Shown here: positions 59,340 to 63,144 of the stretch, one piece after another
Position numbering within the stretch: position 1 is the stretch's first letter
How the letters are laid out: each line of letters starts with the position of its first letter
Source of the DNA: Clostridiales bacterium
GTDB taxonomy: Bacteria; Bacillota; Clostridia; Christensenellales; Aristaeellaceae
Length of the DNA: 64,000 nt
Direction of reading: 5' to 3'
Assembly (NCBI GenBank): GCA_024684375.1
Contig: JAIKWZ010000033.1
Coordinates: forward strand, 19,620-83,619
Notes under the pieces: model-generated
Databases searched by the model: none
What the model saw: the letters and a program-made list of their open reading frames with translations, nothing else
What the model was told of the DNA's origin: nothing
Made by a program: the position numbers and the translations under genes

Positions 59340-59798
59340 TCAAGTCTGGCTTGAGTTTTTTTCATCTGGATTTGTCTGATCAAATCTGGCCAGCAACTTT
59401 TTGAAAAACACTTTCTGCATCCCGCCAACGGCGAACTGCGCGAGATACTCTACCTCCGGTTTGGACAAATGGGCATCCTCATTTTCGTCATACACATAAG
59501 TCGGATCGCCCCAGGCCCGCCTGAAATGACGTCTCAGTTTTTCGGTCGGCGCGTTTTTGTACATATTCCTGTAATATGGATTCCTTATGAAAAGCTCAAA
59601 TCGTATGCCACAGACGGGAAACATTGCGAGATACTCCTCATCAGGCCCGGGCAGATGAGTGTCATCACCTTCATCATCCACATAAGTCGGGTCGCCCCAG
59701 GAACGCCTGTTAAAATGTTTCAGTTTTTCGGTGGGCGCTTTTTCGTATATCTCCCTGTAGTATGGATTCCTCATGAATAGTTCAAATTGGTTCCTCAT
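59340..59798 (-). CDS. tandem RNPYY-repeat hypothetical protein
   Basis: A 152-residue soluble protein made of two similar halves: FMRNPYYREIYEKAPTEKLK...WGDPTYVDDEGDD (about 6-48) and FIRNPYYRNMYKNAPTEKLR...WGDPTYVYDENED (about 68-110). Each half has basic-aromatic then acidic sequence. No known family is recognised. It overlaps the upstream 105-residue gene by 17 bases. That neighbour contains one related motif. The pair lies behind the SAM-type riboswitch. Confidence 0.65.
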   Translation of the reverse strand: MRNQFELFMRNPYYREIYEKAPTEKLKHFNRRSWGDPTYVDDEGDDTHLPGPDEEYLAMFPVCGIRFELFIRNPYYRNMYKNAPTEKLRRHFRRAWGDPTYVYDENEDAHLSKPEVEYLAQFAVGGMQKVFFKKLLARFDQTNPDEKNSSQT

Positions 59799-60099
59799 TA
59801 TCCTTCCCCTCCCTTTCTGTCAATTCCTTTATCCTTTCCCGCCAGTATACGACCTTTGGGTTGTTGCCGCAGTATCTCAGTGCGTGCCTGCAATCCGCAA
59901 TGCTAAAATGTTTCTCAAGCTCCTTTGCCTGTTTTATAGCCTCGTCCACCTTTGTCTCATCGCGAGTTTCGCTCCAGAAAAAACTAAGCAAGACGTACCG
60001 CTTTGAGTACTCTGACGGCGCGTCATCATAATACCGTTTCCAGTACGGATTCCGCAAAAACAGCTTCGCCGCTTCCCATATTTCTTTTTCCGTGATCAT
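59782..60099 (-). CDS. single RNPYW-motif hypothetical protein
   Basis: A 105-residue, highly charged helical protein. Near the N-terminus it has LFLRNPYWKRYYDDAPSEYS, clearly related to the repeats of the next gene. The rest differs (DCRHALRYCGNNPKVVYW). GGAGA precedes the ATG by 6 bases. It is the first gene downstream of the predicted SAM riboswitch and attenuator at 60201-60330. Confidence 0.65.
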   Translation of the reverse strand: MITEKEIWEAAKLFLRNPYWKRYYDDAPSEYSKRYVLLSFFWSETRDETKVDEAIKQAKELEKHFSIADCRHALRYCGNNPKVVYWRERIKELTEREGKDNEEPI

Positions 60100-60612: not shown

Positions 60613-61398
60613 ATGCGGGAATTTTTTGGGCTGGAAGTTGAAAACGGCGGTTATCTGCGGGAGCCGGAAGGCTATTTTTCCTGGCAGCACCTGGTGTTTG
60701 TGACCCTGATCTGCCTGGCCGCCATCCTCCTCGGTATTGTGCTGGGAAAGCGTAACCGCGGCCGCTCGGACAGGGAAAGGAACCGTGTGCTGATCGCGGC
60801 GGCATTGCTCCTTGACGCCCTGGAACTGTTTGAGATCGTGTTTCTCTGTTTCCGCAGCCACGATCCCATGAACTGGCTGAAGAACCTGCCGCTGTTTCTG
60901 TGCAGCGTGCAGGCTGTCGCCCTGCCCATGGCGGCTTTCTGCAAAGGGCGGCTGAAACTGGCGGCGCAGGACTTTGTGTCCGTCTTTGGCGTGCTGGGAA
61001 TGCTGCTCGGCACCTACGGCGCCGGCCAGAACTATGCCTGCTACCCGGTTCTCTCTTTCAACAATGTGCAGTCGGGCATTGTCCACGGCATTTCGGGATT
61101 CGCGGCCATTTATATTTTTACCGCGGGGCTGGCCAGCCTGCAGAAGCGCAATATCCCGATCACTTACAGCATCCTGGCCGGGCTCTGTGCGGCGGCATAT
61201 GCGGCCAATGTGCTGATCGGCTACAACTACATGTTCCTCATGCGGGGCGACGGCACCCCCTATGATCTCGTGTACAATGCGGTCGGGGGAAGCCCGGTGC
61301 TGTACCCGCTGAGCGTAGTCGCTCTGTTCCTGGTTTACATTGCGGTATTCTATTGGGTGGTCTTCCTCATCCGGCGCAAACGGGCAAAAGCCATGTGA
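60613..61398 (+). CDS. YwaF / TIGR02206-family integral membrane protein
   Basis: A 261-residue protein with about seven hydrophobic helices. LKNLPLFLCSVQAVALPMAAF (about 95-115) is the conserved LPL-x-LC region of this family, and NYACYPVLSFNNVQSGIVHG follows. The function is unknown. The codon use (ATA apparently absent, CGG favoured) resembles its downstream neighbours and differs from the genes before 60 kb. Confidence 0.78.
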   Translation: MREFFGLEVENGGYLREPEGYFSWQHLVFVTLICLAAILLGIVLGKRNRGRSDRERNRVLIAAALLLDALELFEIVFLCFRSHDPMNWLKNLPLFLCSVQAVALPMAAFCKGRLKLAAQDFVSVFGVLGMLLGTYGAGQNYACYPVLSFNNVQSGIVHGISGFAAIYIFTAGLASLQKRNIPITYSILAGLCAAAYAANVLIGYNYMFLMRGDGTPYDLVYNAVGGSPVLYPLSVVALFLVYIAVFYWVVFLIRRKRAKAM

Positions 61399-61482: not shown

Positions 61483-62496
61483 TCATTCCCGGTTCCTCGC
61501 GCAGAAAGGCGATTCATACAGGTCTCCGTGGACAAAATAGTTGTAGGAACGGCACCCGCCCCTGCAAATCCAGTTATCCGGGCACTCCGCGCACTTGCCG
61601 TGCAGGTTTTCCCATGTCATCTTCCGGTTGTACGCGAAAGCGTCCGGGTCCTCCCAGATTTCCCGGAGGGAGCGCTGCCTCAGGTTTCCTTCGATGAAGC
61701 GGTCGTCATACAGCGCTTCGCATCCCTTGACGTTCCCGACGCTGTCGATGCCGATGGCGTCGATCCCCGCCCGGCATCCCCTGTATACCGCCGCCCCGCT
61801 GAGGTTGCCCCGCAGGCTGCCTTCATTCTCCGTAAAGTATCCGATGTTGTCGGCAATCCCCAGGATAAAGGGGGCCTGCCTGGTATGCGCGGATACGAAA
61901 TCAATCACCGTCCGGAAATCAAAACGGTAATCGATCCCTCCCCTGGCCGCGTTGCCCATCGGGGAGCAGGCCTGGATCTGCCACGCCGCAACGGGATACC
62001 CTTTCAGGTATGCGTACATCTCTTCCAGATCCGATACGTTCTCATGATTCAGCGTAGTGATCACGGAGACAGGGATCCCGCTCCGGCCCAGGCGGTCAAT
62101 GGCTGCCTCTGCCCTGGCAAAGCTCCCGGGCTGCCGCAGCCGGTCATGATGCTCCTTCATGCCGTCCAGGGATACCGCGACAGACTCGATCCCGATCTCC
62201 CGGATCCGGGATACGAGGGTTTCCGACATCTGGAAACCGTTGGTGATGATCGAGGTCCGGACCCCTTTGGTGACCAGGCGATCGGCGATCCGGTCCCAGT
62301 CGCTTCGCATGAAGACTTCCCCGCCGATCAGGGCGACCCTCTCGCAGCCCAGGTCGGCCAGCTGATCTGCGAGATCAAGGCATTCCTCCCCGGTCAGCTC
62401 GTCAGGCCTGGCTTTTCCTCCGCTGGAACCGCAATGCCTGCAGGAAAAGCAGCATGCCAGCGTGATCTCCCATACACAATCCCTGAGCGTGTACAT
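61483..62496 (-). CDS. radical SAM / SPASM-domain protein
   Basis: A 337-residue radical enzyme. The [4Fe-4S]/SAM site is CCFSCRHC (Cys15, Cys19, Cys22, spacing CxxxCxxC). The barrel includes VALIGGEVFMRSDW and TNGFQMSE. The C-terminal SPASM region carries GCRAGIDAIGIDSVGNVKGC and CAECPDNWICRGGC. SPASM radical enzymes usually modify peptides or proteins. The ATG at 62496 has GGAGGA upstream. It lies 89 bases downstream of a WXG100 gene on the same strand, which suggests that protein as substrate (inference). Confidence 0.85.
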   Translation of the reverse strand: MYTLRDCVWEITLACCFSCRHCGSSGGKARPDELTGEECLDLADQLADLGCERVALIGGEVFMRSDWDRIADRLVTKGVRTSIITNGFQMSETLVSRIREIGIESVAVSLDGMKEHHDRLRQPGSFARAEAAIDRLGRSGIPVSVITTLNHENVSDLEEMYAYLKGYPVAAWQIQACSPMGNAARGGIDYRFDFRTVIDFVSAHTRQAPFILGIADNIGYFTENEGSLRGNLSGAAVYRGCRAGIDAIGIDSVGNVKGCEALYDDRFIEGNLRQRSLREIWEDPDAFAYNRKMTWENLHGKCAECPDNWICRGGCRSYNYFVHGDLYESPFCARNRE

Positions 62497-62585
62497 CGCT
62501 TTTCCTCCGTGTGCCGCTGTTTTGATTTGCAGCGCTCCCTTACCCACGGTTCTCCGTGCCTGTATGGGGGAGCGGCAGAATCCTG

Positions 62586-62996
62586 TCAGGTCAGGTGACC
62601 TTTGAAGTTCTTGAGGTTAAGGATCGTTTGGGGCGCGCCGTAAAGCATCGTAACCATCGGCGTCTGAATTACTTTCCAGTCAAAGTGGATACCGCCGGCC
62701 CCGCCCCCGTCCTTGATGGTGCTCCTGGCCTGCTCGTCCGCTTCCTGGTAAGCCTTGGCCGCGCGCTGGATCATCTGGACATAGGATTCCACCAGCGCCG
62801 CCATCTTCTTGAACCATTCCACAGCTTTCCGCTGTTCTTCCATGAATGCTTTCTGGGAATCCCCTTCCCAGGACTGCCCGAGTACTTCGGCGCACGCATA
62901 AACCTTGCATGCGGTGCTCAGGTAATCTTCTGCGGCCTGGTGAATCTTGCTGGCGGCATTGTACATTTCGGAGATTGTAACCTCAAACCTGGCCAT
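62586..62996 (-). CDS. WXG100-family protein with C-terminal extension
   Basis: A 136-residue helical-hairpin protein. The WEG turn motif (QSWEGDSQKAFMEEQ) lies at residues 43-45, between two helices, as in WXG100/EsxA type VII secretion substrates. Typical members are ~100 residues. This one continues with KDGGGAGGIHFDW and a ~40-residue tail to KNFKGHLT. AAAGGAGG precedes the ATG. No type VII secretion genes are in the window. The next gene on the transcript is a radical SAM/SPASM enzyme. Confidence 0.85.
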   Translation of the reverse strand: MARFEVTISEMYNAASKIHQAAEDYLSTACKVYACAEVLGQSWEGDSQKAFMEEQRKAVEWFKKMAALVESYVQMIQRAAKAYQEADEQARSTIKDGGGAGGIHFDWKVIQTPMVTMLYGAPQTILNLKNFKGHLT

Positions 62997-63115: not shown

Positions 63116-63144
63116 ATTATAGCCAAATTGCGTCGGCGTTTCAA
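63116..63144 (-). promoter_or_regulatory. promoter of the WXG100 / radical SAM operon
   Basis: On the minus strand TTGAAA (63144-63139) and TATAAT (63121-63116) are 17 bases apart. The leader to the WXG100 ATG is about 110 bases. The intergenic stretch 62997-63333 shows no gene. It holds this promoter and an A/T run near 63180-63195. Confidence 0.75.

What the first reader, a model, noticed from the sequence alone, without database searches (positions are those of the whole stretch)
61483..62996. WXG100 protein with an extra tail paired with a radical SAM/SPASM enzyme
The two genes share a strand and promoter (63116-63144) with an 89-base gap. WXG100 proteins are normally ~100 residues. This one has about 36 extra residues after a GGGAGG hinge, containing His, Trp, Tyr, Asn and Lys that radical enzymes could modify. 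SPASM enzymes commonly mature peptides fused to leader-like parts, so the WXG100 fold could act as a leader and secretion signal for a modified C-terminal core. A system that modifies a type VII-type substrate in this way would be new to my knowledge.
Basis: partly seen in the sequence, partly recalled or inferred. Interest (0 to 1): 0.72.

Follow-up and report, generated by a model that had tools for sequence, protein, structure and literature searches.

The report
Splicease-tagged type VII secretion protein
The window encodes a WXG100 protein (the small protein type exported by type VII secretion) with a conserved extra tail, next to a radical SAM enzyme related to tyramine-excising "spliceases" that is predicted to cut a piece of a tyrosine out of the tail's LYGAP motif, which would likely give an exported protein with a reactive keto group built into its backbone.

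Summary
In detail: a 136-aa WXG100 protein with a ~40-aa tail lies 89 nt upstream of a 337-aa radical SAM/SPASM gene. The enzyme is nearest to TIGR04103/TIGR03913; PlpX, the splicease that excises tyramine from Xaa-Tyr-Gly, is of this kind (PMC11002830; the family link is partly recalled). In the 18 tailed homologues four tail residues barely vary (W 17 of 18; P, Y, P 18 of 18), as W..IQ.P....LY(G/A)xP. Of 13 genomes with a close enzyme, 11 have a .Y[GA].P protein next to it, about 1.3 expected, on unrelated carriers. The pair is adjacent in 3 of 3 family genomes with an enzyme at least 88% identical. The genome has EssC elsewhere. In G146 the enzyme lies between an EssC-like ATPase and a VYAAP-tailed protein. 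I read this as a PlpX-like splicease acting on a type VII substrate; chemistry and export are untested. Against: the enzyme misses the TIGR04103 cut-off, no PlpY was found, and the tail outside its anchors evolves fast. The paper likeliest to cover this ground (Scott 2022) was not held.

The parts
62586..62996 (-). WXG100 (ESAT-6-like) protein with C-terminal tail, 136 aa
   Evidence: PF06013 40.1 bits, TIGR03930 46.8 bits, both over cut-off; AlphaFold helices 8-41 and 46-94, most of the tail under pLDDT 50, mean pLDDT 62.9; Foldseek best matches EsxA structures, E 7e-3, none at E <= 0.001
62862..62870 (-). W-E-G turn (W43-G45)
   Evidence: sequence; W43 and G45 invariant in the 29 rows of A1
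62736..62750 (-). YxxxD (Y83-D87), candidate type VII export motif
   Evidence: sequence; Y83 invariant in the 19 rows of A2; role of YxxxD recalled, not tested
62589..62708 (-). tail, residues 97-136, Gly-rich hinge then variable core
   Evidence: present in the 18 homologues of 126-145 aa, absent from the 97-aa ones aligned
62631..62678 (-). conserved core W107..I110 Q111 .P113....L118 Y119 G120 A121 P122 (proposed splice site at L-Y-G)
   Evidence: P113, Y119, P122 in 19 of 19 rows, W107 in 18 of 19
61483..62496 (-). radical SAM/SPASM enzyme, 337 aa, PlpX-like
   Evidence: TIGR04103 best NCBIfam match 232 bits, cut-off 725 not reached; trees; Foldseek PqqE, SuiB, SkfB
62431..62454 (-). CxxxCxxC motif (C15, C19, C22) for the radical SAM cluster
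   Evidence: invariant in alignments A3 and A4
61579..61776 (-). SPASM domain with auxiliary-cluster cysteines
   Evidence: PF13186 31.2 bits; C241, C259, C302, C305, C311, C315, C332 invariant in A4
62497..62585 (-). 89-nt spacer with ribosome site GGAGG 62508-62504 for the enzyme
   Evidence: sequence; spacer region not unusually folded, z -1.0
63116..63144 (-). promoter-like TTGAAA-17-TATAAT
   Evidence: 11 of 12 consensus matches

Best explanation
[quoted passage not shown] Steps. (1) Shown: both genes are adjacent, on one strand, behind a promoter-like site; the tail is a separate module after a WXG100 domain. (2) Shown: enzymes of this clade lie next to tyrosine-motif proteins on unrelated carriers. 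(3) Inferred: the enzyme recognises the short W..IQ.P....LYGxP segment and acts on Y119. (4) Inferred from PlpX: radical reaction at the tyrosine, loss of C8H9NO (135.07 Da) and rejoining, giving a ketoamide at the former Leu118. (5) Inferred: export through the WXG and YxxxD signals by the EssC encoded elsewhere in the genome. (6) Inferred, weakest: the electrophilic ketoamide inhibits or traps a serine or cysteine protease outside the cell.
For: Tail motif: in the 18 tailed homologues plus the query, P113, Y119 and P122 are in 19 of 19, W107 in 18, L/M at 118 in 19, G/A at 120 in 18. PlpXY naturally acts on LYG and MYG and needs no leader; tags derived from its substrate with PIRPGYGLPI were spliced in 2 of the FtsZ placements (PMC10533398 passages). 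PlpX is a SPASM radical SAM of subclass IPR026482 acting on Xaa-Tyr-Gly (PMC11002830 passage). Our enzyme's best NCBIfam match is TIGR04103, nif11-class maturase 3 (that TIGR04103 and IPR026482 are the same entry is recalled). Trees: it groups with a TIGR04103 and TIGR03913 enzymes apart from MftC and TIGR04053, 100/99 (from which I left out TIGR04133, NirJ, Rhizobium, Indioceanicola and Agathobacter rows) and 100/98 (with them; TIGR04133 then falls inside, NirJ, Rhizobium and Indioceanicola outside). Context: 11 of 13 genomes with a close enzyme have an adjacent .Y[GA].P protein, summed chance expectation 1.3: WXG100 tail LYGAP or LYAAP, VYAGP proteins (up to 10 copies), VYAAP tail. More distant relatives: Nif11 peptide LYGLP (Nostoc), leader-type peptide AYGVP, proteins with KYGVP, KYGYP or KYAAP repeats, two of them with a chagasin domain (PF09394), DUF1843 peptides. 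Outgroup controls: 0 of 7 radical SAM loci outside the clade have the motif next door; the 2 TIGR04133 loci, inside the clade, do. Type VII link: EssC 902 bits in the genome (cut-off 778.4); in G146 an EssC-like ATPase, the enzyme and a VYAAP-tail protein follow each other with a 13-nt gap and a 4-nt overlap. WXG100 control: 0 of 28 other WXG100 loci fetched in the family carry the motif.
Against: The enzyme scores 232 bits against TIGR04103's cut-off of 725. No PlpY-like partner was found in 8 genomes (a 71-aa query, so weak). Ten of 19 rows have G after the Tyr, 8 have A, one M; PlpX activity in the passages seen is on XYG. Tags with PIRPLYGLPI, the closest in letters to our LYGAP, were not accepted at the two FtsZ sites where they were tried (Table 1 of PMC10533398). 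The tail evolves fast overall. EssC is on another contig and the pair is not in its locus; G175 shows no EssC (81% complete). VYAGP proteins with zinc ribbons show no export signal that I recognised, so export is not a general feature of the clade. Two of 13 close genomes lack the motif (G577 none found; G701 at a contig edge), and 3 of 10 distant ones (G379, G546, G311) show only AYGLI/LYGII inside a transporter within 1.5 kb. The motif was chosen after looking, and genomes of one genus are not independent.
Confidence: 0.55

Rival explanations
1. The enzyme modifies the tail tyrosine by another radical reaction, such as a Tyr/Trp or Val/Leu-Tyr cross-link (as MftC or cyclophane-forming SPASM enzymes do, recalled) or a beta-carbon change, not by tyramine excision.
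For: W107 is nearly as conserved as Y119, which could mean a Trp-Tyr pair is the target; the nearest solved folds are PqqE, SuiB and SkfB, which do other chemistry (chemistry recalled); A or M replaces G after the Tyr in 9 of 19 rows.
Against: The closest curated family is TIGR04103; the Y(G/A)xP motif is shared with other carriers in which no W..I.P segment is seen; MftC and TIGR04053 enzymes fall outside the clade, NirJ too.
Confidence: 0.25
2. The tail is modified but the protein is not a type VII export substrate; the WXG100 fold is a scaffold used inside the cell, like the VYAGP carriers of related enzymes.
For: A related carrier in G455 ends in a zinc ribbon (PF13240), and similar CxxC ends are seen by eye in G395, G699 and G327; the EssC locus is on another contig.
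Against: WXG and the Y of YxxxD are conserved; another relative has an EssC-like ATPase directly beside the enzyme; the genome has an EssC over cut-off.
Confidence: 0.25
3. The two genes are neighbours by chance or only share a promoter.
For: The pair lies outside any secretion locus that I recognised, and six other genomes of the same genus show neither gene at the thresholds used.
Against: The pair is adjacent in 3 of 3 family genomes while the outer neighbours differ between the two genera; 0 of 28 other WXG100 loci fetched carry the motif.
Confidence: 0.04

Closest known systems
PlpXY splicease and spliceotides (Pleurocapsa PCC 7319; IPR026482, by recall TIGR04103)
   Same: SPASM radical SAM enzyme whose nearest curated family is TIGR04103; partner protein with (L/M)YG; a short tag without leader suffices for PlpXY
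   Different: enzyme below the family cut-off, no PlpY partner found, substrate is a WXG100 protein and not a Nif11 or nitrile-hydratase leader peptide; activity untested
GDL-motif peptide maturase TIGR03913 with DUF1843 peptides
   Same: second-best NCBIfam match; neighbouring peptides carry YG or YA motifs
   Different: different carrier, motif without the Pro, enzyme with extra C-terminal part
TIGR04133 enzymes with radical SAM-associated lipoproteins
   Same: third-best NCBIfam match; inside the clade; both lipoproteins examined have YG.P near the N-terminal lipid-type Cys (CEYGSP, CYGMP)
   Different: lipoprotein carrier; very long branch; chemistry unknown to me
WXG100 / EsxA-EsxB substrates of type VIIb secretion
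   Same: hairpin fold, WXG turn, YxxxD
   Different: about 40-residue tail with an enzyme-linked motif; radical SAM gene next door
VYAGP proteins beside close enzymes in other Clostridia families
   Same: same enzyme clade (51-58% to ours in G455, G395, G559, G327; 59-61% to the homologue P0053 in G699, G700, G703), same YxxP motif
   Different: no WXG100 domain; motif often repeated

Membership tests
WXG100 family | Pfam PF06013 / NCBIfam TIGR03930 over cut-off | tested here: met
   40.1 bits (cut-off 27.3) and 46.8 bits (cut-off 44.85)
WXG100 family | WXG turn between two helices | tested here: met
   W43-E-G45; predicted helices 8-41 and 46-94
WXG100 family | length near 100 residues | tested here: not met
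   136 aa; the first 96 fit, the tail is extra. It is a WXG100 domain plus an added module
type VII secretion substrate | EssC-type ATPase in the genome | tested here: met
   G000 C60:113049-116531, 902 bits, cut-off 778.4, followed by a YukD-like gene at 25.2 bits, cut-off 27
type VII secretion substrate | encoded in the secretion locus | tested here: not met
   different contig (C58 against C60)
type VII secretion substrate | protein found outside the cell | not testable with these tools
   needs culture
radical SAM/SPASM enzymes | CxxxCxxC and SPASM cysteines | tested here: met
TIGR04103 (nif11-class maturase 3, PlpX type) | score over the curated cut-off | tested here: not met
   232 bits against 725; so described as PlpX-like, not as a TIGR04103 member
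splicease system | Xaa-Tyr-Gly motif in the partner protein | tested here: met
   LYG in the window protein; across rows Y in 19 of 19, then G in 10, A in 8, M in 1
splicease system | RRE partner PlpY | tested here: inconclusive
   no match at E <= 1 in 5 of 8 genomes, G000, G641 and G175 among them; in the other 3 the best is 0.07, inside longer frames; query only 71 aa, a Nostoc gene placed like PlpY
splicease system | loss of C8H9NO from the motif | not testable with these tools
   needs mass spectrometry

The most novel reading that the evidence does not exclude
Bacteria use backbone splicing to arm a type VII secretion protein: a WXG100 carrier delivers a ribosomally made ketoamide (beta-amino acid) warhead outside the cell to trap proteases, with a second version in a relative where the splicease sits directly between an EssC-like motor and its tailed substrate.
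Probability: 0.33. Interest if true: 0.87.

Novelty: new variant of a known kind. Interest (0 to 1): 0.74.

Why it matters
If true, radical SAM backbone splicing extends from small natural-product peptides to a protein export pathway: a type VII substrate with an electrophilic residue made by the ribosome and one enzyme. It would give a radical-SAM-modified WXG100 protein (other modifications of WXG100 proteins are in print, for example CFP10 phosphorylation, PMC10653824, title in the listing), a likely function for a large set of uncharacterised enzymes (the 120 best hits are 62-89% identical; 4731 hits of all degrees at E <= 1e-3), and a natural tag of about 16 residues near a protein's C terminus. 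In the open library I found no paper joining the two subjects (searches; also 17, 23, 76, 89, 96; listings, and passages of five papers); the most relevant paper, Scott 2022, was not available to me, so priority is unsettled.

Tried and rejected
Tail conserved as a whole: rejected; only anchors are. RNA structure in the spacer that would set the ratio of the two genes: not supported, z -1.0, and the G641 spacer differs in sequence. Viral contigs as extra context: three scans found no relative. More tails in six genomes: none convincing; apart from the known tails of G000, G175 and G641 the hits have E of 0.28 or more. Contexts of the 18 tailed homologues found could not be fetched apart from those in held genomes. 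Two pairs share contig length and source with an enzyme hit (P0011/P0029, 22362; P0013/P0030, 2016), which suggests the same contig but is inference; the 97-aa WXG100 P0161 also lists 22362. A first control script parsed only 4 of 9 outgroup loci and 21 of 28 WXG100 loci; one search repeated both on all: 2 of 9 outgroup loci have .Y[GA].P next door, both TIGR04133 with its lipoprotein, and 0 of 28 WXG100 loci have it. Tropicibacter, in the clade, has FYGLP in an adjacent 323-aa phosphotransferase-type protein, which I do not count as a precursor. AlphaFold models are moderate (enzyme pLDDT 73.7, WXG100 62.9), so fold matches are supporting only.

Full report
Observation. On the minus strand of the window a 136-residue WXG100 gene (62586-62996) is followed after 89 nt by a radical SAM/SPASM gene (61483-62496), behind a promoter-like TTGAAA-17-TATAAT at 63144-63116. 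The enzyme's better start is ATG 62496, with GGAGG 7 nt ahead; the mechanical ORF begins at GTG 62547. Both domain calls exceed curated cut-offs. The window lies in a 2.9-Mb, 67-contig genome, 77% complete; this protein is its only PF06013 match at E <= 0.001. The two named relatives are an uncultured Clostridiales genome (RUG14706) and a Clostridia genome from water-buffalo rumen.

The tail. A search of 5.8 billion proteins gave 28 homologues, 18 of them with a tail (126-145 aa); with an alignment as query 86 were found, most of the rest being 97 aa long and, where aligned, ending where the tail would begin. In the 18 plus the query, the Gly-rich hinge and the end vary in length and sequence, but P113, Y119 and P122 are in 19 of 19, W107 in 18, Leu or Met at 118 in 19, Gly or Ala at 120 in 18. 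Between G000 and G641 (locus L004), dN/dS is 0.14 for residues 1-96, 0.15 for the enzyme and about 1.1 for the tail (31 codons). This is a fast-evolving segment pinned at a few positions. AlphaFold gives a helix hairpin with a mostly low-confidence tail (mean pLDDT 62.9); the best solved matches are EsxA structures, E 7e-3.

The enzyme. Its best NCBIfam match is TIGR04103 (nif11-class peptide radical SAM maturase 3, 232 bits; cut-off 725), then TIGR03913 (GDL-motif peptide maturase) and TIGR04133; all 19 enzymes of alignment A3 match these three at E <= 1e-20, and 11 further families too. PlpX, the founding splicease, is a SPASM enzyme of subclass IPR026482 that excises tyramine from Xaa-Tyr-Gly with its partner PlpY (PMC11002830, passage; that IPR026482 equals TIGR04103 is recalled). 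PlpXY acts naturally on MYG and LYG and works on ten-residue tags without a leader; in FtsZ, two placements with PIRPGYGLPI in the tag were accepted, several others were not, and PIRPLYGLPI was not accepted at the two sites tried (PMC10533398, passages). In trees the enzyme falls with a Nostoc TIGR04103 protein, Azospirillum TIGR03913 proteins and Clostridia relatives, apart from MftC and TIGR04053 (100/99, built without TIGR04133, NirJ, Rhizobium, Indioceanicola and Agathobacter). In the fuller tree NirJ, Rhizobium and Indioceanicola are outside as well and TIGR04133 falls inside on a very long branch. PlpX itself was not available to me as a sequence.

Neighbours of relatives. I looked at 13 genomes with a close enzyme: G000, G175, G641, G146 (family), G455, G577, G395, G559, G327 (class sample; 51-58% identical), and G699, G700, G701, G703 (59-61% identical to the homologue P0053). 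In 11 of 13 an adjacent same-strand frame has .Y[GA].P; at the background rate (9 motifs in 43,829 aa) the chance expectations sum to 1.3. The carriers differ: WXG100 tail (G000 LYGAP; G175 and G641 LYAAP), a 196-aa protein ending in TLVYAAPDSMRF... (G146), and VYAGP proteins with one to ten copies (G455, G699, G703, G700, G395, G559, G327), one with a Pfam zinc ribbon (G455) and others with similar ends by eye. The misses are G577 (none found) and G701 (contig edge). Of ten genomes with more distant enzymes (37-41% identical to ours or to P0053), 4 of 10 have .Y[GA].P next door: KYGVP, KYGYP or KYAAP repeats in G398, G547 and G1018, of which G398 and G1018 have a chagasin-family inhibitor domain, and AYGVP on a leader-type peptide in G851. 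Three more have LYG or AYG peptides without the Pro (G224, G258, G778), and 3 (G379, G546, G311) show only AYGLI/LYGII inside a transporter within 1.5 kb. Among plasmid hits, Nostoc has a Nif11 peptide ending ALYGLPPELF plus a 71-aa gene after the enzyme; Azospirillum and Aureibacter have DUF1843 peptides with LYGG, PYGV, LYAA, MYAA or PYGA; in Agathobacter an unannotated frame ends GPVMYGTGVRM. Control: in 9 loci of other radical SAM families the motif is next door in 2, both TIGR04133, whose lipoproteins read CEYGSP and CYGMP near the lipid-type cysteine; in the 7 others it is absent. Since TIGR04133 falls inside the clade, I take this as an extension of the pattern, but a stricter reader may count it as 2 of 9 control hits. 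I chose the motif after seeing it, and genomes of one genus are not independent, so the counts are supportive and not a clean probability.

Pairing. WXG100 matches at E <= 1e-3 occur in 18 of 200 family genomes; of the 36 places listed, 28 beyond G000 and G175 came with loci, and 0 of 28 has the motif in a frame over the match (two of the 28 are from G146, which has the enzyme on another contig). The enzyme at E <= 1e-80 is in 4 of 308 family genomes (G000, G175, G641, G146). In G000, G175 and G641 both genes are adjacent (gaps 89, 95 and 95 nt), with different outer neighbours in the two genera. Six other genomes of the window's genus show neither gene, so the pair is patchy. In G146 the 48% enzyme lies 13 nt after an EssC-like ATPase (TIGR03928 387 bits, below the cut-off) and overlaps the VYAAP-tail gene by 4 nt.

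Secretion. G000 has an EssC over the cut-off (902 bits, cut-off 778.4) on another contig, followed by a YukD-like gene (25.2 bits, cut-off 27) and small genes without clear Pfam matches. EssC over the cut-off is in 7 of 15 genomes examined; G175 has no match in its 81%-complete assembly, and G641 was not examined. The WXG turn and YxxxD are present (YxxxD as export signal is recalled).

Reading. [quoted passage not shown] Pairing is well supported; the chemistry rests on family and motif; export rests on fold and genome content; a protease-inhibiting role rests on spliceotides being described as protease inhibitors (PMC11117315, passage) and on chagasin domains fused to the motif in two distant relatives. 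The main rival is another reaction at the same tyrosine, perhaps involving W107.

Prior knowledge. Searches for WXG100 with radical SAM (2 papers, neither about this by title), type VII secretion with radical SAM and RiPP (1 paper, on Enterococcus), WXG100/ESAT-6 with modification terms (17 papers, 10 listed), chagasin with radical SAM (0 papers), splicease (11 papers, 7 listed) and spliceotide (15) showed no title or abstract start describing such a system. Reviews seen in passages say that these beta-amino-acid products are widespread (PMC10373908; PMC11002830). Scott et al. 2022, whose title covers peptides and proteins, is not held, so I cannot say whether it lists WXG100 carriers.

Noticed in passing
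L054 11469-16490 (G146 contig C12): EssC-like ATPase, 48% identical enzyme and a 196-aa protein with a C-terminal VYAAP tail in a row: a second link of this enzyme clade to type VII-type genes.
   Followed up: partly
L043 344-1291, L087 2512-3462, L048 473-1420: Proteins with many KYGVP, KYAAP or KYGYP repeats beside related enzymes; the first two carry a chagasin-family peptidase-inhibitor domain (PF09394), suggesting protein-sized spliced inhibitors.
   Followed up: partly
L056 9887-10996 and L058, L059, L060, L088, L090, L091: VYAGP proteins with up to ten motif copies, some with zinc-ribbon-like ends, next to close enzymes in other Clostridia families.
   Followed up: partly
L100 1578-2420 and L101 2062-2451: Lipoproteins beside TIGR04133 radical SAM enzymes have YG.P (CEYGSP, CYGMP) next to the N-terminal lipid-type cysteine: the same kind of motif in another probably exported carrier type.
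   Followed up: partly
L061 4444-5664 (G175): The enzyme has Tyr where the 34 rows of alignment A4 have a SPASM cysteine (C241); the near-identical copy in L004/G641 keeps the Cys. Possible decay or assembly error.
   Followed up: no
L049 4713-4919: Unannotated small frame ending GPVMYGTGVRM, 81 nt before an Agathobacter rectalis plasmid radical SAM gene: a possible missed precursor peptide.
   Followed up: no
window 60613-61398 (+): TMEM164-like membrane protein (PF14808, 70 bits) convergent with the enzyme gene.
   Followed up: no
window 59340-60099 (-): Two neighbouring frames (152 and 105 aa) with repeated RNPYYR/RNPYWK-type segments; not searched against family libraries.
   Followed up: no
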